A stretch of DNA of 14,858 bases from the NCBI GenBank assembly GCA_002352945.1, contig DDHL01000099.1, positions 3,013 to 17,870 on the forward strand, read 5' to 3'. Shown piece after piece: positions 1 to 13,655 of this stretch. Source of the stretch: Campylobacteraceae bacterium UBA1877 (GTDB lineage Bacteria; Campylobacterota; Campylobacteria; Campylobacterales; Campylobacteraceae). A model generated the notes under the pieces. That model worked only from the letters and a program-made list of their open reading frames with translations. It made no database searches and had not been told where the DNA came from. The position numbers were made by a program, and so were the translations under genes. Positions within the stretch are counted from its first letter, which is position 1. Each line of letters opens with the position of its first letter.

Positions 1-898
1 TTACCATCACTTCAACAGCTGCCATTCTATCGCCACTTTTTGTACGTACAAGACGCTGGGAAATCACCCCCTGCAAAACCGACGAGAGGGACATTTTGAT
101 TCTATTTTGATCGCTTCCTTGAAACATTCCAATGATTCTATTAATAGTCTCTTTTGCATCAACGGTATGTAGTGTTGAGAGAACCAAATGGCCGGTTTCT
201 GCTGCATGCAAGGCTGTCTCGATGGTTTCTAAATCACGCATTTCGCCTACTAAAATAACATCTGGATCTTCCCTTAAAGCAGCGCGCAATGAATCGGCAA
301 AATTCAGTGCATCTTGGCCAATAGCTCTTTGATTAATGATGCAGTTATCATCTTTATAAACATACTCTACTGGATCCTCAATGGTAATTATATGCTTTTT
401 ATAGTGCTTATTTATGTAGTTTATCATGGATGCAAGAGTAGTTGTCTTACCGCTTCCTGTTGGTCCGGTTACCAAAACCATTCCTCTTGAAAAGTTACAA
501 AAACGCTTAATTACTGGTGGAAGCTTTAATGAATCAAAGGTTGGCAAAGTTGATGGAATCGTCCTAAAAACAGCAGATACCCCATCAACTTGAAAGAAGA
601 TATTAACCCTAAAGCGATAAGAGTCATCTAATTTGAAAGTAAAATCTACATTCTTTTTTTCAACCAGCTCCACAAAACGGGTTCGCAACAACTCCTTTGC
701 AAGGGTTACTCCATCATTATGGCTTAAAACCTCATTTCCAATGGGCACAATCTCGCCATTTACTCGACCGCGCATACATGAGCCAGTCTTTACATGTAAA
801 TCGCTCCCGCCTATTTTGACCAAATGTGCCAAATATTGACGAAGTTTTTTAGTCATTTCAAAAGTAAGTTCATTAACATTTACTTCAATATTTGACAT
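1..898 (-). CDS. pilT: PilT-type twitching motility / type IV pilus retraction ATPase (partial, C-terminus cut by window edge)
   Basis: This is a secretion-type hexameric ATPase of the PilT family, which powers retraction of type IV pili from the cytoplasmic side of the inner membrane. The window holds 299 residues from the ATG at 898; the C-terminal end lies off the left edge. Visible motifs in order are the N-terminal SDLHV motif (residues 32-36), Walker A GPTGSGKTT (145-153), the Asp box IEDPVE (173-178), Walker B ILVGEMRD (215-222) and the His box TGHLVLSTLHT (235-245). A strong ribosome site, GGAGGAGAGG, lies directly before the ATG and overlaps the stop codon of tal, so the two genes are probably cotranscribed. 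Pilus structural genes are not in view. PilU or another paralogue of PilT is possible because the diagnostic C-terminus is missing. One TTTACATGTAAA copy encodes LHVK inside the conserved SDLHV motif. Confidence 0.9.
   Translation of the reverse strand, partial: MSNIEVNVNELTFEMTKKLRQYLAHLVKIGGSDLHVKTGSCMRGRVNGEIVPIGNEVLSHNDGVTLAKELLRTRFVELVEKKNVDFTFKLDDSYRFRVNIFFQVDGVSAVFRTIPSTLPTFDSLKLPPVIKRFCNFSRGMVLVTGPTGSGKTTTLASMINYINKHYKKHIITIEDPVEYVYKDDNCIINQRAIGQDALNFADSLRAALREDPDVILVGEMRDLETIETALHAAETGHLVLSTLHTVDAKETINRIIGMFQGSDQNRIKMSLSSVLQGVISQRLVRTKSGDRMAAVEVMV
789..800. repeat. TTTACATGTAAA copy 1 (exact)
   Basis: Inside pilT, encoding LHVK within the SDLHV motif. Protein constraint may explain part of this copy. 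Confidence 0.9.
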
Positions 899-907
899 CC
901 TCTCCTC

Positions 908-1891
908 CTAGAAAGCGGCTAAAATATCCTTAAATGCATCATGGAAAGCTTTTACGCCTTCTTGGATTAGCTCATCATACACTTTTTGCATATCAATGCC
1001 CGATTGAGATATAGTATCGAAAAATTGGGTTATTGTCTCTTTATCTGGACAATTTACTACTTGATTGCTCTTGTTTTTCATAAATGCGTAAATTGTATCA
1101 AGAGGAGCAGTGTTGATTGAGTGGGCAAAAAGTAATTCTTGAACATAATATGCAGCCGGCAATGCATCACTTTTAACACCTGTGCTTGCAAAAAGAGTTC
1201 GCACATTTGGCATATCTGCTTCTTTTATAAGCTGGTAAATTGCTGCTGCATTCATAATACCGACTCGACTAGTTGGCAAGCCTTTTTCTTGCAAAATAGG
1301 ATCAAGTTTTCTATCAAACCTACTAACAAATACGCTTATAACTCCTTGAGGTAGCTTGCCTTTACATGTAAGGCTTGCTTTTTTAAATGCTTCAATACAG
1401 CCTTTAGCTTGCTTGGGAGAGAAAACAAGCGTAGCATTTATGTTTATTCCCTCAGACATAAGCACTTGCATCGCTTCAAATCCAGCCTTGGTTGCTGGAA
1501 TTTTAATCATTACATTAGCTCTATCAATCGCTTTGAAAAGACGCCTTCCTTCAGCTATTGTAGCCTTTGCATCATCACTTAAGAAAGGATCAACTTCAAT
1601 ACTGATAAATCCATCATCTTTTGCATCATAAAGTGGCTTTAGCGTATCGGCTGCTATTTTAATATCCTCAATTGCTAGAGCCTCATAAATCTCTTTTGGA
1701 CTTTTACTGGCCAAAGCTTTTTTAGATTCTTGATAGGCCGATGAATTTAAAAAGGCAGATTTAAAAATGGCTGGATTGCTTGTAGCTCCGTTTACTTTCC
1801 CATCTTTAATTAACTCTAAAAACTCCCCTTTTAAAAAACTCTTTTCAACAAAGTCGCACCATAGCGAAAACTTTTCCTCTTTAAAATACAT
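908..1891 (-). CDS. tal: Transaldolase
   Basis: Transaldolase moves a three-carbon dihydroxyacetone unit between sedoheptulose 7-phosphate and glyceraldehyde 3-phosphate in the non-oxidative pentose phosphate pathway, in the cytoplasm. The protein has 327 residues, a usual length for the family. It shows GATSNPAIF (35-43), SIEVDPFLS (97-105) and the Schiff-base lysine K130 in NVMIKIPAT. Further on come the NATLVFSPKQA segment and FASTGVKSDALPAAYYV, both typical of the barrel. The start is supported by a GGAAGA ribosome site just upstream. It sits 21 bp after serB and 9 bp before pilT, which suggests one transcript. The same tal-serB-cheW order is remembered for Campylobacter. Position 1361-1372 carries a one-mismatch copy of the dispersed palindrome, read as LTCK. 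Confidence 0.95.
   Translation of the reverse strand: MYFKEEKFSLWCDFVEKSFLKGEFLELIKDGKVNGATSNPAIFKSAFLNSSAYQESKKALASKSPKEIYEALAIEDIKIAADTLKPLYDAKDDGFISIEVDPFLSDDAKATIAEGRRLFKAIDRANVMIKIPATKAGFEAMQVLMSEGININATLVFSPKQAKGCIEAFKKASLTCKGKLPQGVISVFVSRFDRKLDPILQEKGLPTSRVGIMNAAAIYQLIKEADMPNVRTLFASTGVKSDALPAAYYVQELLFAHSINTAPLDTIYAFMKNKSNQVVNCPDKETITQFFDTISQSGIDMQKVYDELIQEGVKAFHDAFKDILAAF
1361..1372. repeat. TTTACATGTAAA copy 2 (one mismatch)
   Basis: Inside tal; plus strand reads TTTACATGTAAG. Read as LTCK on the coding strand, a different codon phase from the LHVK copies. Confidence 0.75.
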
Positions 1892-1912
1892 CTTTCTTCC
1901 TTGGTAAATTGT

Positions 1913-2539
1913 TTATATAAATTTTATAATCTCTTCTAAATTTTTCTCATCTACGCAATAAGTTGCCGCCTCTTTTAAAATCGGCTTTGCACAAAAAGCA
2001 ATTTTTAAATCTGCATGGGCAAACATAGACCTATCGTTTGCTCCATCTCCAACGGCCATTGTCTCTTCTGGCTTTACATGTAAAAGACGCTGGATGGTTT
2101 GAAGCATTGTCCCTTTTGAGGTATCAAACATCATCTCTCCTCCAACTTCGCCTGTTAATTTTCCATCCTTTACATGTAAAGTATTTGAAAAATCTGCATC
2201 AAAACCCAAAACTTCTCTAGCATGAGATGTAGCTGGCTTAAACCCGCCACTAAAGACAACCACTCTTATGCCGCGATCTTTTAAAGTTTTGATGCACTTG
2301 CTAGCTCCTGGCATATAAGGCAGGTTTTGGCAAATTGCTTGTACATCTTTATAATCTAAGCCCTTTAACAATCTTACCCGTTTAGTAAGCGATTCAAAAA
2401 AGTCCAACTTACCTTGCATTGCAGCTTCGGTTATTTTAGATACCTCTTCTTGGATTCCTAACGGTTTTGCTAAAAAATCTATCGTCTCCCCATCCATCAG
2501 GGTTGAATCAAAATCAAATACACACAGTTTTATTGACAC
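1913..2539 (-). CDS. serB: Phosphoserine phosphatase (GTG start)
   Basis: This HAD-family enzyme releases phosphate from O-phosphoserine, the last step of serine synthesis. I place the start at the GTG at 2537-2539, giving 208 residues beginning (M)SIKLCVFDFDSTL. The GTG has an AAGGAA ribosome site about five bases upstream, while the longer ATG start at 2581 would translate through a strong hairpin and add 14 residues unlike the family. Motif I is DFDST with nucleophile D9 and acid D11, motif II is VVFSGGF with S97, the motif III lysine is probably K142, and motif IV is GDGAND (164-169). The gene lies between cheW and tal. Two exact TTTACATGTAAA copies, 96 bp apart, both encode LHVK. Substrate is assigned from the family and from conserved neighbours, and the call is firm. 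Confidence 0.92.
   Translation of the reverse strand: MSIKLCVFDFDSTLMDGETIDFLAKPLGIQEEVSKITEAAMQGKLDFFESLTKRVRLLKGLDYKDVQAICQNLPYMPGASKCIKTLKDRGIRVVVFSGGFKPATSHAREVLGFDADFSNTLHVKDGKLTGEVGGEMMFDTSKGTMLQTIQRLLHVKPEETMAVGDGANDRSMFAHADLKIAFCAKPILKEAATYCVDEKNLEEIIKFI
2073..2084. repeat. TTTACATGTAAA copy 3 (exact)
   Basis: Inside serB, encoding LHVK in RLLHVKPEE, 96 bp from copy 4. Confidence 0.9.
2169..2180. repeat. TTTACATGTAAA copy 4 (exact)
   Basis: Inside serB, encoding LHVK in NTLHVKDGK. Flanked by C and G, so the palindrome extends to 14 bases. Confidence 0.9.
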
Positions 2540-2562
2540 TTTATTTCCTTGTAGAAGCAAAT

Positions 2563-2580
2563 TGGGGAAAATCTTCCCCA
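2563..2580 (-). other. Intercistronic hairpin between cheW and serB
   Basis: A perfect 7-bp GC-rich stem, TGGGGAA / TTCCCCA, encloses a 4-base loop. It lies just after the cheW stop codon and about 24 bases before the serB GTG start. No uridine run follows it on the minus strand, so it does not look like a strong intrinsic terminator. It could protect the 3' end of the upstream che message, weaken serB expression, or be an attenuator. The function is inferred from position only. Confidence 0.5.
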
Positions 2581-2585
2581 TAAAA

Positions 2586-3083
2586 TCAAAAGTCGCGTTT
2601 TAGCAGGGATTCTACTTTTAAAATCGTAAGGATGCTATCTTCTCGCTTTCCAATACCATAAATCATCCCTTTATCTTTATGGAGTGTTTCTGGAGCTGGA
2701 TCGATGCGATCTTTGCGAATTCGGATTGCTTCAGTTAGACGATCGATTACAAAACCGGCGATATTATTTTCGCCTTTCATGACAATGTAGCGTGTCTCTT
2801 CAGTCTGTTTTGTAGCTTCAAGGTTGAATTTTTTGCGCAAATCAATTAGCGGGATAACATTTCCTCGTAAATTAAAAACACCCAAAATATAATCAGGCAC
2901 ACTTGGGACCCTTGTGTACTCAATTGGCTTAATTATCTCTTGAATATTGAGCATTGGAATAGCATACTCTTCATCGCTAACGATAAATCCCACAAGCTGC
3001 ATTATCTCTTCATTACTCTTTGCATCAGGCTCTGTGAGCTGTTTTTGCTGCTTTGATAAAATCTTATTTAATCTATCATTCAT
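2586..3083 (-). CDS. cheW: Chemotaxis coupling protein CheW
   Basis: CheW links methyl-accepting receptors to the kinase CheA in the polar chemoreceptor array. The 165-residue protein is a single CheW-like domain (about residues 29-160) after a 25-residue polar leader. It shows FIVSDEEYAIPMLNIQEII, then VPSVPDYILGVFNLRGNVIPLIDLR, the segment characteristic of CheW and CheV. The ATG lies inside the end of cheA: the two genes overlap by 8 bp, and a GGAGCAG sequence in the cheA tail serves as ribosome site. Overlap predicts translational coupling and matched stoichiometry with CheA. It is the last che gene of the cheV-cheA-cheW run and is followed by a hairpin. The call is secure. Confidence 0.95.
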   Translation of the reverse strand: MNDRLNKILSKQQKQLTEPDAKSNEEIMQLVGFIVSDEEYAIPMLNIQEIIKPIEYTRVPSVPDYILGVFNLRGNVIPLIDLRKKFNLEATKQTEETRYIVMKGENNIAGFVIDRLTEAIRIRKDRIDPAPETLHKDKGMIYGIGKREDSILTILKVESLLKRDF

Positions 3084-5421
3084 GGGACTGCTCCGGTAAT
3101 TTTATATTTTTGCGCACAACGCTCTCTAAATACTCAGGCGAGTAAGGCTTAGTAATATACTCTGTCATACCTACTTCAACACCGCGCAATCTATCTGATT
3201 TTGAGGTTCTTGAAGTTACTGCAATGAGTGGAAGGTTTTTATATTTTGAGTATTTTCTAATCTCTCCTGCTAGAGTGTATCCATCCATTCGTGGCATCTC
3301 AATATCAATAAGCACTGCATCAATACTATGCTCGCCTGATTTGATGATATTTAAAGCCTCAAGTCCATTTGTTGCCTCTATTGGCGTAATTCCTAGTGGC
3401 TGCATAGATTTAATCATAATATTTCTATCCATTTTACTATCATCAACCACTAAAACCTTATAATCACTTGGCTTAGTTTTTACACTGTTTTGATTATCAT
3501 TTGATGCACGAACGTCTACTTTAATTCCCTTTGCCATCTCCATGAGTGCAGCTACATCGACAATGAGTGTAACCCTACCACCACCGCGAATCGTTGCACC
3601 AGCAATTCCTTCGATTCCTTGCAAGTAATCACCCATGGATTTAATAACAATCTCTTCTTGACCTATAAGAGTATCTACCATAACACCAAGTTTTGATTCG
3701 GCTAAACCTATCACAACTACATAGGTCATATCGCCGCCTTCGAATACTTGCTTAACTCCAAATACATCAGATAGTCTTACTAAAGAGAGTACCTCATCTC
3801 GAAGTCTTAATACATTTTTACCCTCAATTGTATAAATGTCATCGATTGGCACACGAACAGTTTCTAAAACTGAAGCTAGAGGAATTGCATAATACTCTTC
3901 TTGGGCTCCAACAAGCAAGGATTGAATAATAGCAAGGGTAAGCGGTATTTTTAATTTTATAACAGTTCCCCGACCAAGCTCTGAATCAATATCGATAATA
4001 CCGTTGAGTTTTTCGATATTGGTTCGAACAACATCCATTCCAACGCCCCGTCCTGAAACATTGGTTACTTGTTTAGCCATTGAAAAACCAGGCTTAAAGA
4101 TAAGATTAAAGGCCTCTTTGTCACTCATTGCATCTGCTTCGCGCTCGGTAATGAGTCCTTTTTCCATCGCTTTCATCTTTAATAAATCTGGATCTAAGCC
4201 CTTACCGTCATCGGTAATTTCAATAACAATATGGTTGCCCTCATGATAAGCTTTAAGCTCAATCAAACCTTTTTCTGGCTTATTTGTAGTTGCACGCACA
4301 CTTGGCTCTTCAATGCCATGGTCACATGAGTTGCGAATGATATGTACAAGAGGATCGCCAATCTCTTCAACAATAGATTTATCAAGCTCTGTCTCTTCAC
4401 CTGTAATTTCAAGCTCAATTGACTTTCCAAGTTCACGCGAAAGATCACGAACCATCCTTGGAAATTTGTTAAAGACTTTGGCAATTGGAAGCATCCTCGT
4501 TTTCATAACTGCAATTTGCAAATCAGTTGTAACAATAGAAATTGAAGATACTACTTGGTTAAGTTCTTCTAAAAACTGCTCCCCTTCATAACGCTCTTCC
4601 ACATCATCATAAATTTTAATAAGGCGGTTTTTGCCCAAAACAAGCTCACCAATAAGATTCATCAAATCATCAAGCCTTTTAGCCTCAACCCGAATTGTCT
4701 GCTCAATGGATGAGCCTTTTTTAGCTGGGGCTGCTTTTTTAGCTTGGGGTTTTTTGGGAGCAGGTTTTTTAGCTGGGGCCGACTCTTTAGCTTCTGGCTG
4801 ACTCGCCTCTTTAGCCTTTTTAGCAGCTTTACGTTTGCGGTCTTCTTCTTTTCGCTCTTTTAAAAGACGTTCAATTTCAGCTTCAATCTCTTCATCGCTT
4901 AATTTAGACACATCAATTTCTTCTTCTTGTGAAGACTCGCTGCTTGAGCTAGGCTTGTCCTCTTTTGATGACTGGGCGCTTGAATCAGGTTTATCCTCTT
5001 TAGACTCTTCTTTGGCTGGCAAAATCTCATCTTTATTCGAAATTGCAGTAAGCCTCGCGCAAATATCATCAATATCGATTCCTACATCTGTATCATTTCC
5101 ATAGTCTCGAATACCATGCAAGAGCGCTTTCATCATATCGATTGATTCTAAAACCACATCCATAATTTCAGGTGTTATAACAAGCTCTGCACGACGGGCT
5201 TTATTTAAAACATCCTCCATATGGTGCGTTAGCTTTGTAAGCACATCAAAATTCAAAAATGATGAAGAGCCTTTTATAGTATGTGCAACCCTAAAAATCC
5301 TATTAAGCAGTTCCAAATCTTCTGGATTTGCCTCTAGCTCCACTAAATCTTGATCGATTTGATCAATCAGCTCAAAAGCTTCGACCAAAAAATCTTCGAG
5401 AATTTCTTGAATATCTTCCAT
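3076..5421 (-). CDS. cheA: Chemotaxis histidine kinase CheA with C-terminal receiver domain (CheA-REC / CheAY)
   Basis: This is the central chemotaxis kinase, 781 residues. Domains in order are an N-terminal HPt with phospho-accepting H47 in AHTIKGSSSF; a long low-complexity linker (about 135-237); a dimerisation helix pair (about 238-310); the HATPase core with N box HIIRNSCDHGIE (360-371), G1 DDGKGLD (404-410) and GRGVGMDVV (457-465); a CheW-like regulatory domain (about 495-630); and a receiver domain (about 654-773) with D660/D661, phospho-acceptor D706 and K758. The CheA-receiver fusion is usual in Campylobacterota and may act as a phosphate sink or self-regulator. No typical CheY-binding P2 domain is evident; the linker takes its place. 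The ribosome site GAGGTGGG precedes the ATG, and cheV ends 10 bp upstream. Confidence 0.96.
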   Translation of the reverse strand: MEDIQEILEDFLVEAFELIDQIDQDLVELEANPEDLELLNRIFRVAHTIKGSSSFLNFDVLTKLTHHMEDVLNKARRAELVITPEIMDVVLESIDMMKALLHGIRDYGNDTDVGIDIDDICARLTAISNKDEILPAKEESKEDKPDSSAQSSKEDKPSSSSESSQEEEIDVSKLSDEEIEAEIERLLKERKEEDRKRKAAKKAKEASQPEAKESAPAKKPAPKKPQAKKAAPAKKGSSIEQTIRVEAKRLDDLMNLIGELVLGKNRLIKIYDDVEERYEGEQFLEELNQVVSSISIVTTDLQIAVMKTRMLPIAKVFNKFPRMVRDLSRELGKSIELEITGEETELDKSIVEEIGDPLVHIIRNSCDHGIEEPSVRATTNKPEKGLIELKAYHEGNHIVIEITDDGKGLDPDLLKMKAMEKGLITEREADAMSDKEAFNLIFKPGFSMAKQVTNVSGRGVGMDVVRTNIEKLNGIIDIDSELGRGTVIKLKIPLTLAIIQSLLVGAQEEYYAIPLASVLETVRVPIDDIYTIEGKNVLRLRDEVLSLVRLSDVFGVKQVFEGGDMTYVVVIGLAESKLGVMVDTLIGQEEIVIKSMGDYLQGIEGIAGATIRGGGRVTLIVDVAALMEMAKGIKVDVRASNDNQNSVKTKPSDYKVLVVDDSKMDRNIMIKSMQPLGITPIEATNGLEALNIIKSGEHSIDAVLIDIEMPRMDGYTLAGEIRKYSKYKNLPLIAVTSRTSKSDRLRGVEVGMTEYITKPYSPEYLESVVRKNIKLPEQSHE
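4717..4779 (-). repeat. Imperfect direct repeats coding for the Ala/Lys/Pro-rich CheA linker
   Basis: The 15-base unit TTTTTTAGCTGGGGC (plus-strand sense) occurs exactly at 4717-4731 and 4765-4779, with a variant at 4735-4749. On the coding strand these give AKK/PAPKK-type segments (about residues 215-235 of CheA). An upstream serine and acid part contains a second repeat, SKEDKP, twice (near 139 and 152). Such repeats can expand and contract, so linker length may differ among strains. Confidence 0.7.
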
Positions 5422-5431
5422 AATCCCACCT

Positions 5432-6382
5432 CTACTCTGGAGCTTTTATATGAGCTTTGATAACTTTGAATACTTCTTTATAGAAGACCGATGCATCAAA
5501 TTTAGTTAAATAGGCCTCACCGCCCGCCTCTTTTCCTCTAATTTCACTAAAGTGGTCGCTAATGGAGGAGTTAAATACGATTGGAATCCTTGCAAATCGA
5601 GGATCTTCTTTCATATTTGCAGCAAAGTGAAACCCATCCATCCTTGGCATCTCAACATCACTAACAATGATGCGCAGCTCCTTTTCTAAGCTATCGCCGT
5701 AAGCTTCATAAAGCTCATTCATTTTTTCAATTCCCTCTGCCCCATCTCGAGCTTCAACAACTTTTAGACCCATTTTATTTAAAGCATCATGGACTAATTT
5801 TCGAGCAATTGTACTATCATCTAAAATAAGAGCTGTTCCACTAATCTTTTCAGGTTCAGTTTCGCTTTCATCCACTTTTGGCTTGTAAATTCCCAACTCT
5901 TCAACAACACTTTCTAAATCCAAAATAAGCAGCACTTCATCATTTTCGATACGAGTTACTCCTGTAATTTGGCTCCGATCTAACGCGCCCACACCTGTTG
6001 CAAAAGAGGCTGGCTCAATATCATCCCAGCTAATCCTTCGAATGCGTTTTGCTTCATGAACAATAAAACCAATAAGAATGTTGCTAAACTCAGCAATGAT
6101 AATTCGAGGTTTTAAACTCTTCTCCTCTGGCTCTTTAATATTCATCCATTTGGCTAGATTGACAACAGGAATTACCACTCCTCGCAGATCAAAAATACCC
6201 TCAACGTACTCAGGAACTCCCGGGAGTTCTGTGAGATTTGGAATTTTTATAATCTCTCGCACTTTTGCGACATTTACACCATAAATGCCCTCATATACAT
6301 GGTCGTTTTCTTGTTTAAAAATACGAAAATCGACCAGTTCCATTTCATTTGAGCCCACTTTGAGCACATTATCATCAAACAT
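5432..6382 (-). CDS. cheV: Chemotaxis coupling protein CheV (CheW-receiver fusion)
   Basis: CheV couples receptors to CheA like CheW but carries a phosphorylatable receiver domain that is thought to tune array output during adaptation. The 316-residue protein has a CheW-like domain (about 14-165) with LPGVPEYVEGIFDLRGVVIP (53-72), then a short acidic linker (171-180) and a receiver (about 183-310). The receiver has acidic pair D188/D189, phospho-acceptor D242 in IVSDVEMPRMDG, and conserved K294. It starts with an ATG inside the end of the upstream phosphoesterase gene (8-bp overlap) preceded by GGGGCA, and stops 10 bp before cheA. Position and domain make-up match the Campylobacter cheV-cheA-cheW order. 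Confidence 0.95.
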   Translation of the reverse strand: MFDDNVLKVGSNEMELVDFRIFKQENDHVYEGIYGVNVAKVREIIKIPNLTELPGVPEYVEGIFDLRGVVIPVVNLAKWMNIKEPEEKSLKPRIIIAEFSNILIGFIVHEAKRIRRISWDDIEPASFATGVGALDRSQITGVTRIENDEVLLILDLESVVEELGIYKPKVDESETEPEKISGTALILDDSTIARKLVHDALNKMGLKVVEARDGAEGIEKMNELYEAYGDSLEKELRIIVSDVEMPRMDGFHFAANMKEDPRFARIPIVFNSSISDHFSEIRGKEAGGEAYLTKFDASVFYKEVFKVIKAHIKAPE

Positions 6383-7118
6383 TGCTGCCCCTTAGTTGCA
6401 GTTTGGCACTTTGCATGCTTTTAGCGCATTGTACAACAAAATAACTTCGTTCACACGCAAAACTTGGAAAGTTAATATAATAAACATTTTCTAGCTTTTT
6501 CTCCAAACCTTGGTGAAAATGGCCCTCTGCAACTGCCCAAACATCTGCTAGCGGATATTTCTTTAGACGCAAAATAGTTTTTTGCTCAAAGTCCTCAATC
6601 TTTTTACAAATCTTTTTTAAAGACAGATCCTTTAAAATTTTTTTGCTGATGCTATGGTCTAATAACTTATCTAACCCATTCAAAAACGATAGCAAAAAGG
6701 AGTTACGGATAATTTTTGTATACAAGCGGTGTTTAAACGAGCCATACTTATCTCCATGCCAAAGAAGCATTTTACCTTTAGGCGTGTTTACATGTAAAGG
6801 TTGCTTTTGAATAGGAATAACCTTTACATGTAAAAATATTTTAGAGAGGTTAAAGTCATGATTTCCCTCTAAATAGTAGACTGGAATCTTTTGGGCCAAA
6901 GCTTCTAAACGAGAAATAATTGGGGCGTAAAATTGGCGAGTATATGTTACCTCGCCAACTAATAAATCAAAAATATCTCCCATTAAAAAAAGCTGGGTTG
7001 GCATCAAAGAGCTTTTATCTAAACCATTTAAGTACTCTTCTAAAAAGTGCCTATTAGCGTTTTCATGAGCATCGGCAATAAAAACTGCTCCAGTTTGGAG
7101 TGTAATATTATGGCACAT
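6375..7118 (-). CDS. LpxH-like calcineurin-fold metallophosphoesterase
   Basis: The 247-residue protein belongs to the metallophosphoesterase fold and is most like UDP-2,3-diacylglucosamine diphosphatase LpxH, which makes lipid X in lipid A synthesis at the inner membrane. Metal-binding blocks are DAH (16-18), GDIFD (47-51), GNHD (85-88), HGD (121-123) and GHFH (199-202). Classical LpxH has GNRD and GHTH; the arginine of the third block, which from memory contacts substrate in LpxH, is histidine here, so the substrate is not certain. Presence three genes downstream of lpxB supports a lipid A role. The ATG overlaps the end of argC by 11 bp and has almost no ribosome site, suggesting coupled translation. 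Two exact copies of TTTACATGTAAA, 36 bp apart, encode LHVK and LHVN. Confidence 0.75.
   Translation of the reverse strand: MCHNITLQTGAVFIADAHENANRHFLEEYLNGLDKSSLMPTQLFLMGDIFDLLVGEVTYTRQFYAPIISRLEALAQKIPVYYLEGNHDFNLSKIFLHVKVIPIQKQPLHVNTPKGKMLLWHGDKYGSFKHRLYTKIIRNSFLLSFLNGLDKLLDHSISKKILKDLSLKKICKKIEDFEQKTILRLKKYPLADVWAVAEGHFHQGLEKKLENVYYINFPSFACERSYFVVQCAKSMQSAKLQLRGSNV
6787..6798. repeat. TTTACATGTAAA copy 5 (exact)
   Basis: Inside the LpxH-like gene, encoding LHVN in QPLHVNTPK, 36 bp from copy 6. Confidence 0.9.
6823..6834. repeat. TTTACATGTAAA copy 6 (exact)
   Basis: Inside the LpxH-like gene, encoding LHVK in IFLHVKVIP. Confidence 0.9.
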
Positions 7119-8124
7119 AACTTAAGGTCGGAATTCCCATATCTTCATCAAAACCGTACATAAGATTGGCATTTGCAACTGCTTGAGATGAGGCTCCGCG
7201 TAAAAGATTGTCAATTGATGTGCTAATAAAGAGTGTTTTTCCTTGAGTTTTTGCAAATATATCGCAAAAATGTGTTCCAATGGTTGATTTTAATGTCACA
7301 GGAGCTGTGCGGATTCGAACGAATGGATCATTTTCATAAAACTTTTCTAATATTTCTAAAGGATTAATAACATTTTGTAACTGCACATAAATACTAACAA
7401 GCATTCCTCTAGTTGAAGCAATAAGCTGGGGAACAAAACAGACTTCAAACTCCTTATTTGATTGTATCTTGACTTGCTCTTTAATCTCAGGAGCGTGGCG
7501 GTGGGTCAAAGGATTGTAAGCAAACATATTTTCATTTACATTAACAAATTGTGTTGTAGGATTTGGCTTTTTGCCAGCTCCTGAAACACCGCTTTTTGCA
7601 TCAACTATAATAGGGCTATTTGGCTCGATATGGGGTAAAAACGGCACCAATCCTAAAAGTGTCGCTGTAGGATAGCATCCTGGATTGGCCACTAAGGATG
7701 CTTGAGGTATTTTTGAACGGTAAAGCTCTGGAAGTCCATAGACTGCATTTTTTAAATTTTCTGGATCTTCATGGGGGCAGTAATGGGCCTCATACACCTC
7801 TTTGCTTAAACGATAATCAGCCGAGAGGTCTACAACCTTAACACCCAAAGCAATTAACTCTTTTGCAAATCCCATGGCTGTTTTATGGGGCAAAGCTAAA
7901 AAGGCTAGCTCAGCCGCATCAGCAATCTTTTTTGCATCACTTTTTTGCACATCTGCTTTCATAATCCCCAAAAGAGAAGGATGCATAACATCCACCTCTT
8001 CTTTCCCTTCGCTTGTACCAATAAAAGTGATATTAAACATGGGATGATAGTTTAAAATTTTTAACAACTCCAATCCCGTATATCCGCTTGCTCCAACAAT
8101 TGCCACATTTATAGGCTTTGACAT
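7108..8124 (-). CDS. argC: N-acetyl-gamma-glutamyl-phosphate reductase
   Basis: ArgC reduces N-acetylglutamyl phosphate to the semialdehyde with NADPH, the third step of arginine synthesis. I start it at the ATG 8122-8124 (338 residues), which has an AAGGAG site six to seven bases upstream; a longer frame to 8166 would overlap greA and adds 14 unfamiliar residues. The dinucleotide-binding motif is VAIVGASGYTG (7-17), the catalytic cysteine is C150 in NPGCYPTA, and the conserved THRHAPEI (207-214) follows. Lengths and motifs fit the bacterial type 1 ArgC. It sits 10 bp after greA and overlaps the LpxH-like gene. From memory argC is not at this spot in C. jejuni, so it may have joined this gene run in this lineage. 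Confidence 0.95.
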   Translation of the reverse strand: MSKPINVAIVGASGYTGLELLKILNYHPMFNITFIGTSEGKEEVDVMHPSLLGIMKADVQKSDAKKIADAAELAFLALPHKTAMGFAKELIALGVKVVDLSADYRLSKEVYEAHYCPHEDPENLKNAVYGLPELYRSKIPQASLVANPGCYPTATLLGLVPFLPHIEPNSPIIVDAKSGVSGAGKKPNPTTQFVNVNENMFAYNPLTHRHAPEIKEQVKIQSNKEFEVCFVPQLIASTRGMLVSIYVQLQNVINPLEILEKFYENDPFVRIRTAPVTLKSTIGTHFCDIFAKTQGKTLFISTSIDNLLRGASSQAVANANLMYGFDEDMGIPTLSYVP

Positions 8125-8134
8125 ATAAACTCCT

Positions 8135-8626
8135 TTAATTTTCAAACGAGATTGGCTTGTACTCAATACTTACCACTTCATACTCTTGAACACCAGCAGG
8201 AAGTTTAACACTTACCTCATCTCCTTCTGATTTTCCCATAAGCTGTCTAGCTAAAGGAGAGCCCACTGATATGAGTCCGCGTTTTAAATCACTCTCTGTA
8301 ACTCCCACAATCGTATAAGTTACCAACTCTTGAGTATCTAAATTTTCCAAAGTTACCGTTGAGCCAAATCGAACTTTATCGTGTGAATAGCTTGATGGGT
8401 CTACAATGCTGGCTCTGCTCATTAAATCACTAAGCTCTGCGATGCGAGACTCAATAAAGGCTTGTTTCTCCTTTGCTGCATGGTATTCAGCATTCTCTTT
8501 TAAATCTCCATGACTTCTTGCAATATCGATCTCTTTTACAATAGCTGGACGTTGATTTTTTTTCAAATCATTCAATTCAGCTTCTAGCTTATTGTATCCA
8601 TATTGAGTCATTGGTTCAGCCTGCAT
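8135..8626 (-). CDS. greA: Transcription elongation factor GreA
   Basis: GreA enters the secondary channel of RNA polymerase and stimulates cleavage of backtracked transcripts. The 163-residue protein has the N-terminal coiled coil (about 9-80) with the acidic tip in [15 protein letters not shown] (D41 and E44), followed by an FKBP-like C-terminal domain (about 85-160) containing GSTVTLENL and [16 protein letters not shown], the usual C-terminal signature. A good ribosome site, AAGGAG, lies before the ATG. It lies 31 bp after lpxB and 10 bp before argC. A TATAAT hexamer overlaps the lpxB stop codon and may give greA its own promoter. Confidence 0.96.
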
Positions 8627-8656
8627 CTTTTGCTCCTTTTCTTAAAATAAACCTAT

Positions 8657-8662
8657 ATTATA
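8657..8662 (-). promoter_or_regulatory. Possible -10 box for greA
   Basis: A perfect TATAAT on the minus strand overlaps the lpxB stop codon and lies about 30 bases before the greA ATG. No good -35 element is seen at the usual distance, but -35 boxes are weak in this group. It would allow greA and downstream genes to be expressed apart from lpxB. Such hexamers are common by chance in AT-rich DNA. Confidence 0.25.
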
Positions 8663-9689
8663 CCGCAATCAGCTTTGTAATATTTGATGCGCTACCGTGT
8701 TTTAGGTAATTTCGAAGCTCCTTGGCACTTTTTATGAAACGGGTTGGATCGTTTGAGCTATAAGCATCCATAAGGGCTTTTGCATTAAGATCATTTTGAA
8801 GCAATTCTACATGTAAAGGGGGTTTATTCATAAAATCAAATAAAATATTAGCAAGTCCAGCATGCTCTAATTTTACAAAACGCCTTGCAATAAAATAATC
8901 AATTGGGTTTGCCTTGTAGGCTAGGACAAAAGGAACTCCTAAAAGAGCAGCCTCTAGGGTTGCAGTACCTGAGCAGATAAAGGCAAAATGGCTTTGAGTC
9001 AAAGCCTCCTTTGTATCAAAAACCAATTCAAATCCATCGCAATTTCCATAAATTTGTGCAATTTTATCTTTTTGAATAAATGGAGGAACTACAAGCAGCT
9101 TTTTACTTTTAAAATTTGGTGCAATTTGACGAAAAAGAGGCATTAAGCGCCCAATCTCTTTTGGTCTAGAGCCTGGCAAAAATGCAATTGGCGCTTCATT
9201 GCTTAGTAGCTCATTTCTTGCCAAAGGCAAAGAGTCCATAAGAGGATGACCCACATAAATTGCTCTTTTGTACCACTTTTTTTCAAAAGGCAAAATCGAG
9301 GCTAAATTATCACAGTAGCGCTCTACTTTTTTTACCCTATTTTCCTTCCATGCCCAAACCTGCGGAAGGATGTAGTAAGTTATTTTTACATTTGGATTGA
9401 GCTCTTTTATCGCCTTTGCTAGCGGCAGATTAAATGCAGGAGAGTCAATAAGAAGCACATGGTCTGCTTGCAAACTCTCTTTTGCTAAATCTTTTATAGC
9501 TCTTTTAGCTGCTGCAATTTTGGGCAAAACATCCCAAAAACCCATCACATTAAAAGTGCTTGAAGGAAGCGTTGGTTTTGCAAATTGGCTATCAAAAATC
9601 CCACTTAATTCAACATTTTTTAAATTATTTAAAATTGTTTTTAAATGGGCATTAGCCGATGGCTCTAGCGCACTTACTAAAAGTTTCAT
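8658..9689 (-). CDS. lpxB: Lipid-A-disaccharide synthase
   Basis: LpxB joins UDP-2,3-diacylglucosamine and lipid X to form the lipid A disaccharide at the inner membrane face. The 343-residue GT-B glycosyltransferase has the N-terminal SALEPSANAHL (6-16; the family more often reads ASGD here, while the PSAN form is remembered for Campylobacterota), IDSPAFN (81-87), a YYILPQVWAWKENR segment (105-118), GHPLMD (147-152), the nucleotide-binding LPGSRPKEI (171-179) and CSGTATLEAALLGVPFV (239-255). The ATG overlaps the stop codon of the upstream small gene (ATGA), with no clear ribosome site, so translation is probably coupled. A one-mismatch palindrome copy encodes LHVE near residues 291-300. Confidence 0.93.
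   Translation of the reverse strand: MKLLVSALEPSANAHLKTILNNLKNVELSGIFDSQFAKPTLPSSTFNVMGFWDVLPKIAAAKRAIKDLAKESLQADHVLLIDSPAFNLPLAKAIKELNPNVKITYYILPQVWAWKENRVKKVERYCDNLASILPFEKKWYKRAIYVGHPLMDSLPLARNELLSNEAPIAFLPGSRPKEIGRLMPLFRQIAPNFKSKKLLVVPPFIQKDKIAQIYGNCDGFELVFDTKEALTQSHFAFICSGTATLEAALLGVPFVLAYKANPIDYFIARRFVKLEHAGLANILFDFMNKPPLHVELLQNDLNAKALMDAYSSNDPTRFIKSAKELRNYLKHGSASNITKLIAV
8806..8817. repeat. TTTACATGTAAA copy 7 (one mismatch)
   Basis: Inside lpxB; plus strand reads TCTACATGTAAA, encoding LHVE. Confidence 0.7.
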
Positions 9690-9955
9690 TTGCCAATTAA
9701 GTCGTGATATTTTTTTTCAAATTCCAGCATTGCAAAGCGCACTTGATCTAGCATCACAGGAGGAAGATTTGGATCGCTTTTCCACACTAACTCATTGATA
9801 ACATCTGGATAATGAGCGCTTAAATCTTGGACACTTTTTTCAAACTCATCTAAGTCTTTACATGTAAAGCTTTTATCTCTATTTGGATCACATACTTTAA
9901 TGCACCATGAATCTTTTTTTTCATTGAGCATAATAGTGGCAATAAAAGGCTGCAT
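9686..9955 (-). CDS. Small conserved-looking protein of unknown function upstream of lpxB
   Basis: I do not recognise this 89-residue protein. It starts MQPFIATIMLNEKKDSW at the ATG 9953-9955, chosen because AAAAGGAG lies about five bases upstream and a TATAAT promoter about 26 bases upstream; a longer frame to 9982 would start inside the likely 5' leader. The protein is soluble, acidic-basic mixed, with two cysteines in its first half (in SWCIKVC) and a third in FTCK, and the C-terminal half looks helical. There is no signal peptide or membrane segment. Its stop overlaps the lpxB start as ATGA, which argues that it is a real, translated gene coupled to lpxB. It appears to be the first gene of the long lpxB-to-pilT run. 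One exact TTTACATGTAAA is read as FTCK. Confidence 0.75.
   Translation of the reverse strand: MQPFIATIMLNEKKDSWCIKVCDPNRDKSFTCKDLDEFEKSVQDLSAHYPDVINELVWKSDPNLPPVMLDQVRFAMLEFEKKYHDLIGK
9857..9868. repeat. TTTACATGTAAA copy 8 (exact)
   Basis: Inside the small gene upstream of lpxB, read as FTCK. Flanked by C and G, giving a 14-base palindrome. Confidence 0.9.
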
Positions 9956-9980
9956 AAAACTCCTTTTGCTCGTTTGCGCC

Positions 9981-9986
9981 ATTATA
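9981..9986 (-). promoter_or_regulatory. Likely promoter (-10 box) of the lpxB-greA-argC-che run
   Basis: The minus strand reads TTTGCTATAATGG, a consensus -10 hexamer with upstream TGC, about 26 bases before the ATG of the small gene at 9955. A start near 9974 would give a leader of about 20 bases holding the AAAAGGAG ribosome site. No strong -35 is visible, as is common for sigma-70 promoters in this phylum. The preceding 100 bases hold no gene. Confidence 0.55.
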
Positions 9987-10095
9987 GCAAACTAGCTATT
10001 AGAGCTGACTTCTTAAAAGCTTTTAGACGCATCAGTTTTAATAAAATTTTAGACCATTTATCTTTTGGGTAAAAATATAAACTAGTTTACTCTTT
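9987..10095. other. AT-rich intergenic stretch between the ectoine cassette and the lpxB run
   Basis: This is the longest part of the window without a gene apart from the adjoining leader. It contains two self-complementary words, TAAAAGCTTTTA (10014-10025) and TAAACTAGTTTA (10078-10089), and several A and T runs. No RNA gene or open frame of note is seen. It marks the boundary between two transcription units. Confidence 0.5.
10078..10089 (-). terminator. Weak terminator candidate after the M20 hydrolase gene
   Basis: The palindrome TAAACTAGTTTA lies 7 bases after the hydrolase stop codon and is followed on the minus strand by TATTTTTA. With a usable loop the stem is only about four AT pairs, so this would be a poor intrinsic terminator. 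It is listed because nothing better ends the cassette before the next promoter. Confidence 0.25.
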
Positions 10096-11250
10096 TTAGT
10101 CCCTTGGTCTAAACTTGGTTGCAAGTTTTATTAAAACCTTACTTACAGGCTCAATAAGCTTGTCATTAAAGTCGTAATTGCAATTATGGCAGGCAAAGGG
10201 TGCTCTTTTGCCATCATCGGCTCCAATTAACATAAACGCTCCTGGGCGCTCATTAAGATAGTAACTAAAATCTTCTGAAGCCATGATAGGCAAGGGCAGG
10301 TCAGAAAGATAAGACTCGCCAAGCTCCTCTTGTAATATTTTTCTTGCAAATTTTGCTTGCAATGGGTGGTTGATTGTAGCTTTATATCTTGGTCTTATCT
10401 CTACTTTGGCTTCTACTTTGTAGGCTTTTGCACTGCTTTTTACAATCTTTATAATTGCATCTTGAACCTTTTTTCGAATAAGCTCATCTGGAACCCTAAT
10501 ACTTCCTTCAACCAAAACGCTATCTGGAATGGAGGTAAGCCCGCTTCTTCCATCAATACTTGTAACTGATACAACGGCTGCATCTTGAGGTGCTAAGAAT
10601 CTACTTACAATTTGTTGTAAAGCTAGAGTAATTGCGCTAGCTGCTAGTATGGGATCACTGCATAATTCAGGTTGGGAAGCGTGGCCACCTTTGCCTATTA
10701 CTTCAATATGAAAGGTTCCATTTCCAGCCATGACTGTCTTATCTGGGCAAAGAGCTTTGGCAAATTTGATTGCGGGCCAATTGTGCCACCCATAAATTTC
10801 ACTAACTCCATCAAGCGCCCCATCTTCAATCATAGCTTTTGCGCCATGGCCACCCTCTTCAGCTGGCTGAAAAAGAAGCGTAACTGGATACTCCAAAGAT
10901 GATTCAATCGATTTTAAATATAAAGCTACTGCCATAAGCGTTGCACTATGTCCATCATGACCGCACGCATGCATAACCCCTTTTGTTTTGGAAGCATACT
11001 CTAAACCTGTCTTTTCATCAATTTCAAGGGCATCAATATCTGCTCTTAATGCCACACTTGGCCTATCTAAGTTTTTGCCAATAGTTGCGACGGTTCCATA
11101 TTGAGCACACTCTCGCCATGAAATTTTATGCTCATCAAGCATCTGCCTAATACGTTGCGCCGTATTTTTTTCATGCCAGGTTAACTCTGGATTTTCATGA
11201 AGAGTATGGCGAAACTCTACTGCTAAATCTATAATTTCAGACCATTTCAA
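10096..11250 (-). CDS. M20-family amidohydrolase, candidate N-acetyl-diaminobutyrate deacetylase (DoeB2-like)
   Basis: The 384-residue protein is a zinc or cobalt M20D aminoacylase of the hippurate hydrolase type, cutting an N-acyl group from an amino acid in the cytoplasm. Visible residues are the metal-site HACGHDGH (94-101, with C96 and H98), general base and metal ligand in PAEEGG (129-134), H156 in GWHNW, the lid-domain GGHASQP (188-194), ASEDFSYY (324-331) and H355 in CHNCNYDFND. As the last gene of an ectoine-type TRAP and DoeA cluster it most likely deacetylates N-acetyl-2,4-diaminobutyrate, the product of ectoine ring opening. Classical DoeB belongs to another family (AstE/aspartoacylase type), so this would be an alternative enzyme. 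It starts 28 bp after the usp gene with GGAGG before the ATG. General aminoacylase or HipO-like activity is the main alternative. Confidence 0.85.
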   Translation of the reverse strand: MKWSEIIDLAVEFRHTLHENPELTWHEKNTAQRIRQMLDEHKISWRECAQYGTVATIGKNLDRPSVALRADIDALEIDEKTGLEYASKTKGVMHACGHDGHSATLMAVALYLKSIESSLEYPVTLLFQPAEEGGHGAKAMIEDGALDGVSEIYGWHNWPAIKFAKALCPDKTVMAGNGTFHIEVIGKGGHASQPELCSDPILAASAITLALQQIVSRFLAPQDAAVVSVTSIDGRSGLTSIPDSVLVEGSIRVPDELIRKKVQDAIIKIVKSSAKAYKVEAKVEIRPRYKATINHPLQAKFARKILQEELGESYLSDLPLPIMASEDFSYYLNERPGAFMLIGADDGKRAPFACHNCNYDFNDKLIEPVSKVLIKLATKFRPRD

Positions 11251-11265
11251 TCCAGCCTCCTTGGC

Positions 11266-11277
11266 TTTACATGTAAA
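11266..11277. repeat. TTTACATGTAAA copy 9 (exact, intergenic)
   Basis: Fills most of the 28-bp gap between the usp stop codon (one base away) and the GGAGG ribosome site of the M20 hydrolase gene. It is the only copy outside a coding region. Confidence 0.9.
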
Positions 11278-11278
11278 A

Positions 11279-11719
11279 CTATACGACTAAAACGGGGCAT
11301 TTTGCCAAACCAACAACTTTATGCGAAACTCCGCCCAAAAGGTATCCGCTTAAATCTCCCTGCCCTTGCGAGCCAATTACAATAAGATCAATTTCACTCT
11401 TTTTTGCATAACTTAAAATCTGTTTTGCCACCTGTCCACCGCGTACAATACCTTTTATTTTAACTACTCCCTCTTTTCTTGCAATTGCCTTGCCCTCTTC
11501 TACAATCTCTTTAGCGTATGCGCTTAATGTTTCATCTAAACTTTCAGTCCTCTTAGCGATGCCAGCCATTGAAAATGAGCGCTCCATCATGCTGTGATGT
11601 CTAAAAACTGAGAGGATAACAATCTCGCTATCGTACACTTTTGCCATAGCACTTGCAAGTTTTACAGCCTCTAGAGCCTTTTGGGATCCATCTGTTGGAA
11701 CTAAAATTTTTTGAAACAT
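11279..11719 (-). CDS. teaD: Universal stress protein, TeaD-like
   Basis: The 146-residue UspA-domain protein has ILVPTDGS at 5-12 and the ATP-binding signature G116-S-Q-G119 followed nine residues later by G129-G-V-S, so it is of the nucleotide-binding class. In Halomonas elongata the teaABC operon ends with teaD, a Usp that lowers transporter activity, and marine uehABC operons also carry one; by position this protein is expected to bind ATP and adjust TeaABC uptake. It starts 9 bp after teaC with a GGGG-type ribosome site. The TeaD role is inferred from gene order, since Usp sequences alone do not fix partners. Confidence 0.85.
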   Translation of the reverse strand: MFQKILVPTDGSQKALEAVKLASAMAKVYDSEIVILSVFRHHSMMERSFSMAGIAKRTESLDETLSAYAKEIVEEGKAIARKEGVVKIKGIVRGGQVAKQILSYAKKSEIDLIVIGSQGQGDLSGYLLGGVSHKVVGLAKCPVLVV

Positions 11720-13018: not shown

Positions 13019-13027
13019 AACTTCCCC

Positions 13028-13603: not shown

Positions 13604-13625
13604 ATGCTTCCTTTCACAACGAGGC

Positions 13626-13646
13626 GGCGACCCAAAAAGGGTCACC
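13626..13646 (-). promoter_or_regulatory. Intercistronic hairpin between teaA and teaB
   Basis: The minus strand reads GGTGACCC, five T, GGGTCGCC: an 8-bp stem with one G-T pair and a 5-base loop, 9 bases after the teaA stop and 22 before the teaB start. No uridine run follows, so it is not a classical terminator. In transporter operons such hairpins often stabilise the receptor message or reduce read-through to the permeases, which would give receptor in excess. That role is inferred. Confidence 0.6.
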
Positions 13647-13655
13647 AAGAGAGGC

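What the first reader, a model, noticed from the sequence alone, without database searches (positions are those of the whole stretch)
789..11277. Highly iterated 12-base palindrome TTTACATGTAAA across the window
Seven exact copies (789, 2073, 2169, 6787, 6823, 9857, 11266) and two one-mismatch copies (1361, 8806) are present. At about 40% GC a hand estimate expects roughly 0.004 exact copies in 14.9 kb. Copies lie in functionally unrelated genes and in unlike flanks, so they are not parts of a larger repeat or a mobile element. This resembles highly iterated palindromes such as cyanobacterial HIP1, or a motif tied to DNA methylation, DNA uptake, chromosome organisation or mismatch-linked recombination. 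I know of no description of this word in Campylobacterota.
Basis: partly seen in the sequence, partly recalled or inferred. Interest (0 to 1): 0.85.

Follow-up and report, generated by a model that had tools for sequence, protein, structure and literature searches.

The report
Iterated palindrome tied to DNA methylase
A 12-letter DNA palindrome is repeated hundreds of times in the genomes of Sulfurospirillum and some relatives, is kept intact by evolution, and fades in lineages that lost one solitary DNA-methylating enzyme, which suggests a new methylation-linked "self" mark on bacterial DNA.

Summary
TTTACATGTAAA occurs 559 times in the window's 1.94-Mb genome (control word: 1) and 549-792 times in 14 of 24 genomes of one Sulfurospirillum genus, but 0-2 times in 133 genomes of six other genera of its own family. 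The invariant core is TACATGTA.

The sites are actively maintained: orthologous cores are kept 19/19 and 13/16 between Sulfurospirillum species, while flanking 8-mers are kept 50% and 13%. About half lie in the 11-12% of DNA between genes, often just after stop codons.

The best correlate among those tested is a solitary D12 adenine methyltransferase, probably NlaIII-like (CATG). In 21 genomes of that genus with resolved status, all 15 carriers have more copies (258-792) than all 6 that lost the gene from its ancestral locus (14-235). In one loss lineage 0 of 24 sites survive. Exceptions exist outside the genus: G268 and G237, and several sparser genomes, keep the motif without a detected enzyme.

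It works like cyanobacterial HIP1; membership is unproven. Most likely role, inferred: a methylated self-DNA signal, perhaps for natural transformation. Enzyme specificity and DNA uptake were not tested.

The parts
789..800 (.). exact copy TTTACATGTAAA, inside a PilT-family ATPase gene (reads DLHVK)
1361..1372 (.). one-mismatch copy (outer base), inside the transaldolase gene (reads LTCKG)
2073..2084 (.). exact copy inside a HAD-family (SerB-like) phosphatase gene (reads LLHVK)
2169..2180 (.). exact copy inside the same HAD-family phosphatase gene (reads TLHVK)
6787..6798 (.). exact copy inside a metallophosphoesterase (LpxH-like) gene (reads PLHVN); close pair with the next site, 36 bases apart
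6823..6834 (.). exact copy inside the same metallophosphoesterase gene (reads FLHVK)
8806..8817 (.). one-mismatch copy (outer base), inside lpxB (reads PLHVE)
9857..9868 (.). exact copy inside a 98-residue open reading frame with no Pfam family (reads FTCKD)
11266..11277 (.). exact copy between an M20 peptidase gene and the stop codon of a universal-stress-protein gene (11279-11719, minus strand), i.e. just after a stop codon

Best explanation
TTTACATGTAAA is a HIP-like, actively maintained iterated palindrome. SHOWN: hundreds of copies per genome, an invariant TACATGTA core, conservation far above the flanks, and fewer or no copies in the Sulfurospirillum lineages that lost one solitary methyltransferase gene. 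INFERRED: that enzyme, a D12-class (probably NlaIII-type) adenine methyltransferase, methylates the adenine of the central CATG on both strands; the methylated site is a signal worth keeping, so copies are kept by selection or drive, and once methylation is gone they erode. Most likely use, inferred only: a mark of self DNA read during natural transformation, as the adenine methylation of RAATTY by CtsM is in Campylobacter. The confidence given is for methyltransferase-dependent maintenance in Sulfurospirillum (lowered from 0.6 to 0.55 on re-check, because further motif-bearing genomes without a detected enzyme had been left out); I give the methylated-uptake use about 0.3.
For: (1) Over-representation: 559 vs 1 control in the own genome; 106 vs 0.14 expected in 400 kb of a complete Sulfurospirillum-family chromosome G387; the core TACATGTA is 12-38 times expectation in 14 of 16 sampled genomes. 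(2) Maintenance: cores of G387 kept in G310 19/19, G213 13/16, G320 10/14 against flanking 8-mers 0.50, 0.13, 0.07; other 8-bp palindromes 0.63, 0.21, 0.13. Copies with one change in the inner eight bases are at chance (2 vs 2.4 expected in G000, 5 vs 3.5 in G387). (3) Methyltransferase link inside genus g31 (24 genomes): 15 carriers have 258-792 copies; 6 genomes with the gene missing between its intact neighbours have 14-235; 3 are unresolved (exact rank p 4e-5, not corrected for kinship). One-mismatch copies per exact copy, control subtracted: median 0.73 in carriers, 2.0 in the six. On a one-gene tree the 6 fall into four lineages; two of the separations are well supported. (4) Decay after loss: G225 keeps 0/24 orthologous cores and TACATGTA is back to chance (3 vs 2.6); G260 has 1 vs 0.9 with an excess of broken cores (8 vs 2.2). 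(5) The enzyme is a D12 adenine methyltransferase (Pfam) with DPPY motif; a few relatives are named 'Modification methylase NlaIII' (2 of 120 listed, 3 of 120); Pfam finds no restriction enzyme among ten neighbour genes tested, from five genomes. (6) A 363-residue Campylobacter jejuni adenine methylase, which I take to be CtsM, is a full-length relative, 30% identical.
Against: Outside g31 several motif-bearing genomes have no full-length family member by profile search: complete genome G268 (core 26 vs 2.2 expected) and draft G237 (19 vs 0.9) with intact cores, and sparser ones G422 (62 copies), G134 (21, 57% complete), G136 (11), G140 (11), G428 (11) and G393 (58; a fragment only), all clearly above the control word with one mismatch allowed. 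In g31 G320 has an intact core and no enzyme, though its whole locus is missing from the draft. Carrying a family member is not sufficient: genus g39 carriers have 0-8 copies and Campylobacter-side G126 has a full-length member and 0 copies. G423 carries the enzyme but has only 258 copies; G493 is counted as a carrier although its gene lies in two pieces of one draft contig. The high-copy genomes' enzymes group together only with weak support. The direction of cause is not shown: the enzyme may be lost after the motif's use is lost. No methylation data were available. ComEC (50/50) and PilT-family (80/80) genes do not discriminate.
Confidence: 0.55

Rival explanations
1. DNA uptake sequence in the strict sense: a receptor of the competence pilus prefers DNA with the palindrome, so conspecific uptake and recombination enrich it; methylation plays no part.
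For: Copy number of hundreds, enrichment between genes and often right after stop codons, strong conservation in permissive places and lineage dialects of the outer bases resemble what is reported for Neisseria and Haemophilus uptake sequences (PMC2397512 and PMC1939737, passages). ComEC is present in 50 of 50 genomes tested.
Against: Known uptake sequences are not palindromes (PMC1939737 passage). Competence genes do not track the motif: G225 lost all 24 tested sites, while its ComEC is uninterrupted and its PilT paralogue carries a single stop in an otherwise 94% identical protein; G310 has an interrupted PilT paralogue and 730 copies. The methyltransferase link would be unexplained.
Confidence: 0.2
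2. By-product of a methylation-directed mismatch repair or conversion process, as Elhai proposed for cyanobacterial HIP1: biased repair next to methylated sites creates and protects the palindrome without its having a use. (Compatible with the methyltransferase part of the best explanation.)
For: Link to a solitary methyltransferase that tracks the motif; single-base deviations concentrate at the outer positions, as reported for HIP1 (PMC4390886 abstract and first part of section 3.4).
Against: Half of the sites sit in the 11-12% of DNA between genes, which a sequence-blind ratchet does not predict as such; density is about one core per 2 kb and spacing is near random (CV 0.88-0.90). MutH-like or Vsr-like partners were not searched for.
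Confidence: 0.2
3. Binding site of a dimeric chromosome-organising protein (like ParB, Noc or MatP); the methyltransferase is a hitchhiker or regulator.
For: Two-fold symmetric graded site with A-rich flanks; dispersed over both arms of a complete chromosome, 0-11 per 20 kb, variance/mean 1.1; cores persist in G268 and G237 without a detected methyltransferase.
Against: No obvious bias towards origin or terminus in the 20 stretches sampled, by eye. No candidate protein was identified or searched for; an unbiased gene-content comparison was not possible with stretches alone.
Confidence: 0.2
4. Transcription-factor or terminator element.
For: Many copies lie within about 40 bases after stop codons.
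Against: About half lie inside genes; density is highest between convergent genes, which share no promoter, and in G387 lowest between divergent genes (3.0, 1.5 tandem, 0.7 per kb). A 12-base perfect palindrome without a loop is a poor terminator (recalled).
Confidence: 0.03
5. Local accident or base-composition effect.
For: None found.
Against: 559 vs 1; 0-2 copies in 133 genomes of six other genera in the same family; 75 vs 0.15 expected at Markov order 3.
Confidence: 0.005

Closest known systems
HIP1 and alternate HIPs of cyanobacteria (GCGATCGC; Elhai 2015, PMC4390886: abstract, section 3.1 and first part of section 3.4 seen)
   Same: Perfect palindrome, hundreds of dispersed copies in coding and non-coding DNA, solitary methyltransferase whose likely target lies in the centre, deviations at the outer bases, lineages with other dialects, and some genomes with the motif but no detected enzyme.
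   Different: 12 bases instead of 8, AT-rich instead of GC-rich, CATG instead of GATC centre, about 290 exact copies per Mb (G000) instead of the reported 1000-2000, other phylum, strong bias to between-gene DNA.
DNA uptake sequences of Neisseria and Haemophilus (PMC2397512 and PMC1939737, passages seen)
   Same: Copy number, enrichment in permissive and between-gene positions, conservation above flanks, dialects (dialects: PMC3630211, listing only).
   Different: Palindromic; no uptake data; competence-gene integrity does not track the motif.
CtsM / M.CjeNI (Cj0208) of Campylobacter: RAATTY adenine methylation needed for efficient natural transformation (PMC8468864, PMC8627207, PMC3526280, PMC4889913; passages seen)
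   Same: Same order; D12-type adenine methyltransferase with a palindromic site; full-length homology, 30% identity, assuming P0263 is CtsM.
   Different: CtsM's site is short and abundant (28,482 sites in one C. coli genome, PMC8627207 passage); I know of no iterated long palindrome described for it.
NlaIII-type (CATG) modification methylases
   Same: Sequence family by the name of a few relatives; CATG is the centre of the palindrome.
   Different: No restriction enzyme among the ten neighbour genes tested; the real specificity of these orthologues is unknown.

Membership tests
HIP (highly iterated palindromes) | Perfect palindrome grossly over-represented genome-wide | tested here: met
   559 vs 1 control; 106 vs 0.14 expected in G387
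HIP (highly iterated palindromes) | Solitary methyltransferase that recognises the inner sequence of the palindrome | tested here: inconclusive
   A solitary D12 methyltransferase tracks the motif within one genus, with exceptions outside it (G268, G237 and sparser genomes); its specificity was not measured
HIP (highly iterated palindromes) | Single-base deviations biased to the outermost positions | tested here: met
   Inner one-mismatch copies at chance, outer 42 vs 0.4 (G000) and 63 vs 0.8 (G387) expected
HIP (highly iterated palindromes) | GC-rich, about 1000-2000 copies per Mb, in cyanobacteria | tested here: not met
   AT-rich, about 290 per Mb in G000, Campylobacterota; feature as stated in PMC4390886 section 3.1
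DNA uptake sequence (DUS/USS) | Increases uptake or transformation of DNA that carries it | not testable with these tools
   Needs a transformation assay
DNA uptake sequence (DUS/USS) | Enriched in non-coding and permissive positions, conserved above flanks | tested here: met
DNA uptake sequence (DUS/USS) | Not a palindrome | tested here: not met
   The site is a perfect palindrome; feature as stated in PMC1939737
DNA uptake sequence (DUS/USS) | Naturally competent host | tested here: inconclusive
   ComEC family in 50 of 50 and PilT family in 80 of 80 genomes, motif-positive and -negative alike
D12 / NlaIII-type adenine methyltransferase (the linked gene) | D12 methyltransferase domain with DPPY catalytic motif | tested here: met
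   PF02086 positions 1-250 and 1-251 of 253; DPPY invariant in 17 of 17 sequences; model of a near-identical homologue matches only generic class I methyltransferases in the PDB
D12 / NlaIII-type adenine methyltransferase (the linked gene) | Methylates CATG | not testable with these tools
   Only the names of a few relatives say NlaIII

The most novel reading that the evidence does not exclude
A methylated DNA self-recognition sequence in Campylobacterota: a solitary CATG-family adenine methyltransferase marks a long palindrome, the competence machinery takes up or keeps DNA that carries the methylated palindrome, and this drive builds and conserves hundreds of copies. It would join three phenomena known apart: HIP palindromes, uptake sequences, and CtsM-type methylation-dependent transformation.
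Probability: 0.3. Interest if true: 0.9.

Novelty: new variant of a known kind. Interest (0 to 1): 0.74.

Why it matters
The role of HIP1, described in 1995 (reference seen in PMC1939737), is as far as I know still open. Here the same kind of element appears in another phylum, in a genus with complete genomes of named species, and with natural losses of the suspected enzyme in two to four lineages. That turns 'what are iterated palindromes for' into a test of one gene: remove the methyltransferase from a laboratory Sulfurospirillum strain and measure methylation, transformation and mutation next to the sites. If the self-DNA reading holds, it would explain how methylation marks and uptake sequences can grow into each other.

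Tried and rejected
Chance or composition: rejected by Markov and control-word counts. Larger repeat or mobile element: logos fall to background within about 7-10 bases of the core. Promoter or regulator site: disfavoured by location. Other methyltransferase class: N6_N4_Mtase PF01555 shows no pattern with motif count by eye; other classes (PF00145, PF02384, PF07669) were not searched. ComEC and PilT presence: uninformative. I first read pieces of ComEC in G453, G423 and G428 as damage; G453 is a contig end and the other two have no stop in the aligned part. A stop in the PilT paralogue of G225 cannot explain the loss of all tested sites because the gene is otherwise 94% identical to that of G387. 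I first read lower counts of the 12-mer as decay; in G290, G318, G141 and G270 the core stays enriched and only the outer bases are looser, i.e. a dialect. In G320 there is no core decay although no enzyme is detected. Motif inside the methyltransferase genes: 18 cores in 41 genes, nothing special except the plasmid-like copy. Structure search gave only generic class I methyltransferases. Mild TCATGA/ATCATGAT enrichment in G187 is too weak to call an alternate palindrome. A weak match in G372 (E 1e-3, seven stops, not at the ancestral locus) and two weak matches in a 686-residue frame of G225 are not counted as family members.

Limits: ORF calls are simple longest-frame calls; the kinship tree is from one protein with weak inner support; pairs are not independent; rests on sampled stretches (19, 16, 14, 24 and 8 sites); variance/mean of the counts is 1.1 in 20 stretches of G387 but 1.8 in 6 of G000. 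The panels were chosen by me from the genomes (67, 67, 62, 32, 50, 80 and 12 genomes). Names for G310 (S. multivorans), G268 (Sulfurimonas autotrophica) and G452 (Sulfurimonas denitrificans) are recalled from genome lengths; G213 (S. deleyianum), G339 (S. barnesii) and G300 (S. oryzae) are inferred from equal contig lengths; G290 (S. cavolei UCH003); G237 (S. arcachonense DSM 9755) from equal counts.


Full report
WHAT IS THERE. The nine sites are as reported: seven exact, two with one outer change; eight inside genes, one between genes. The window lies in a 1,943,928-base, 121-contig, 82%-complete genome, the only member of its genus in the set, in a family that includes Campylobacter (a methylase of family member G126, genus g5, is 97% identical to one of C. 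volucris). That genome holds 559 exact copies against 1 of the reversed control word. In a 274,829-base sample of it the word is seen 75 times against 0.15 expected at Markov order 3 (5.1 at order 5, whose counts contain the motif); TACATGTA 137 times against about 4.

WHO HAS IT. In the family (153 genomes) copy numbers are 559 (own), 338 and 122 (genus g12), 0-42 in 14 genomes of g10, 21, 2 and 4 in single genomes of g8, g9 and g11, and 0-2 in all 133 genomes of genera g2-g7. In the order (398 genomes drawn evenly) one family (44 genomes seen) stands out. It is Sulfurospirillaceae by its named members: S. cavolei and S. arcachonense loci lie in genomes with 144 and 283 copies. Its genus g31 (24 genomes) has 14-792 copies, 14 of 24 at 549 or more; genus g39 has 0-8, g57 7-310, g65 27-346. 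In a third family, probably Sulfurimonadaceae (names recalled), counts are 226, 86, 62, 21, 14 and 9 at the top and 0-8 in the rest. Other families have 0-3, like the control word (0-6).

ANATOMY. In the complete chromosome G387 (2,876,536 bases; 20 stretches of 20 kb taken along it) there are 106 copies of the 12-mer and 196 of TACATGTA against 0.14 and 4.8 expected, on both arms. The logo, taken on TACATGTA, is graded: T/A at the next two positions 76-93%, C before and G after the 12-mer at about 50%, then A-rich or T-rich flanks. Copies with one change inside the inner eight bases are at chance (2 vs 2.4 in G000; 5 vs 3.5 in G387), while outer changes are common. Spacing is near random (CV about 0.9; variance/mean of counts 1.1 in G387, 1.8 in six stretches of G000) apart from an excess of close pairs (9 of 87 gaps under 100 bases, 2.8 expected). 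About half the copies (52 of 106 in G387 with 2 more on gene boundaries; 35 of 75 in G000) lie in the 11-12% of DNA between genes, about fourfold enriched. Density is highest between convergent genes (3.0, 2.4 and 4.7 per kb in G387, G000 and G213+G310) against 1.4-1.7 between tandem and 0.7-1.8 between divergent genes; many sites are within about 40 bases after a stop codon. Inside genes only the two open frames are used, LHV more than FTCK (33:19 and 33:7).

IT IS MAINTAINED. At the methyltransferase locus of 14 genomes, sites with flank identity 80-90% are kept exactly in 26 of 31 pair comparisons (13% expected), 70-80% in 18 of 34 (4%), 90% or more in 30 of 33 (51%), below 70% in 4 of 12 (pairs not independent). 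Over all sampled stretches, cores of G387 are kept in G310 19/19, G213 13/16, G320 10/14 and G290 3/8, against flanking 8-mers kept 0.50, 0.13, 0.07 and 0.05 and other palindromic 8-mers 0.63, 0.21, 0.13 and 0.13. In G225, a close relative (PilT paralogue 94% identical), 0/24 are kept, against 50/330 flanking 8-mers (p = 0.034) and 52/180 other palindromes: the sites went at least as fast as their surroundings. Upkeep therefore needs something that G225 has lost.

THE CANDIDATE. A family search for D12 methyltransferases (67 genomes) showed, among other hits, a gene of about 325 residues in the high-copy genomes. Forty such genes (about 320-340 residues; one frame of 376 with an upstream start) align as one family; the high-copy enzymes branch together with weak support, G000 and its g12 relatives on a long branch. 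A few relatives are named 'Modification methylase NlaIII' (2 and 3 of 120 listed), i.e. CATG, the centre of the palindrome. Pfam on ten neighbour genes from five genomes finds transglutaminase-like, response-regulator, amidase, GGDEF, DJ-1, short-chain dehydrogenase and transporter families and no restriction enzyme (two small ORFs have no family). In genus g31, 15 carriers have 258-792 copies (14 of 15 at 549 or more; in G493 the gene lies in two pieces of a draft contig). In 6 genomes (G225 14, G453 62, G260 112, G372 124, G290 144, G408 235) the gene is missing between its two intact neighbours. Three are unresolved: G320 (271) lacks the whole locus in a draft, G478's (293) contig starts there, and G443 (412) is 86% complete. 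The separation is complete (rank p 4e-5, uncorrected for kinship). A one-protein tree places the six in four lineages; G225 and G453+G372 are well separated, but that G260 and G290+G408 are separate losses is weakly supported. After loss, G225 and G260 have TACATGTA at chance (3 vs 2.6; 1 vs 0.9), G260 with an excess of broken cores (8 vs 2.2); G372 is intermediate (13 vs 1.0). G290 and G408 carry another branch of the family about 20-26 kb away, and G290 has an ACATGT motif with loose outer bases. A 39.9-kb second contig of G171, plasmid-like (ParA/ParB-like frames by eye), carries its own family member, has 14 cores and no 12-mer, and 5 of its 20 ACATGT lie inside that gene.

AGAINST A SIMPLE STORY. 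G268 (complete) and G237 (draft) keep intact cores without a detected family member, and so, with fewer copies, do G422, G428, G134, G136, G140 and (fragment only) G393, whose one-mismatch counts are well above the control. Genomes with other branches of the family (g39; Campylobacter-side G126) have few or no copies. So the enzyme is neither always necessary nor sufficient; a reader protein is unidentified. Elhai reports the same kind of exception for HIP1 (PMC4390886 section 3.4).

WHAT IT MOST LIKELY DOES. The best match in kind is HIP1 with its solitary methyltransferases (PMC4390886; abstract, section 3.1 and first part of 3.4 seen). The placement in permissive DNA and the conservation match DNA uptake sequences (PMC2397512, PMC1939737; passages). 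The order already contains a methylation-dependent uptake system: Cj0208 (M.CjeNI) methylates RAATTY (PMC3526280 and PMC4889913 passages), and CtsM methylation of this motif (printed RATTY in one paper) is needed for efficient uptake (PMC8468864, PMC8627207 passages). A 363-residue C. jejuni adenine methylase (P0263) is a full-length relative of the palindrome-linked enzyme, 30% identical. I take it to be CtsM from its length (M.Cco280II, RAATTY, spans 1,095 bases), from relatives named 'EcoRI methylase' and from infC- and thrS-like neighbours in the related locus L286 (by eye; gene order in C. jejuni recalled). I therefore commit to a methylated self-DNA mark, with the uptake use at about 0.3. 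ComEC is present in all 50 genomes tested and PilT-family genes in all 80, so gene presence cannot decide.

NOVELTY. Papers with the 12-mer (3), with 'highly iterated palindrome' (10), with Sulfurospirillum and palindrom* (14; passages of one, PMC8865925, seen) and with uptake sequence, Campylobacter and palindrom* (4) show no description by title, listing or passages seen; a broader search on Sulfurospirillum methylomes listed 20 of 5,753 papers, none on this by title. Subscription journals and REBASE were not searchable. I file it as a new variant of a known kind.

Noticed in passing
G171 contig C2 (L291, L292), about 1692-2732: A 39.9-kb plasmid-like contig with ParA/ParB-like frames carries its own NlaIII-type methyltransferase; 5 of the contig's 20 ACATGT sites lie inside that one gene, and the contig uses the short dialect (14 TACATGTA, no 12-mer).
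   Followed up: partly
G225:C1:240528-241541 (L309): The PilT paralogue (same family as the window's 2-898 gene) has one in-frame TAG; described only.
   Followed up: partly
G310:C1 about 273660-275770 (L311): The same PilT paralogue is split by an insertion of about 0.9 kb; the two matched parts overlap by about ten residues, as an insertion sequence with target duplication might leave.
   Followed up: no
G187 (L259-L261, L220): Mild excess of another CATG palindrome, TCATGA 62 vs 31 and ATCATGAT 18 vs 5 expected; possible alternate dialect in genus g39.
   Followed up: no
L037, L042, L046, L048, L050, L065, L094, L102, L109: Nine of 80 listed viral contig pieces hold 2-4 copies of CTTTACATGTAAAG, some with similar spacing (132-145 or 332 bases); may be phages of motif-bearing hosts or unrelated binding-site repeats.
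   Followed up: no
G290 (S. cavolei; searched as G510) chromosome: Exact copies are patchy, with a 226-kb gap between 1,092,698 and 1,318,679 in the 100 positions listed; ACATGT stays common in two sparse stretches (L243, L244; 14 each).
   Followed up: partly
own genome sample and several relatives: GATC is depleted (496 vs 666 expected at order 1 in G000; 30 vs 203 in G318), pointing to an unrelated GATC restriction or avoidance.
   Followed up: no
window 11729-14666: Three genes that look like TRAP-transporter genes (DctM, DctQ, DctP, by sequence look only) beside a universal stress protein gene.
   Followed up: no
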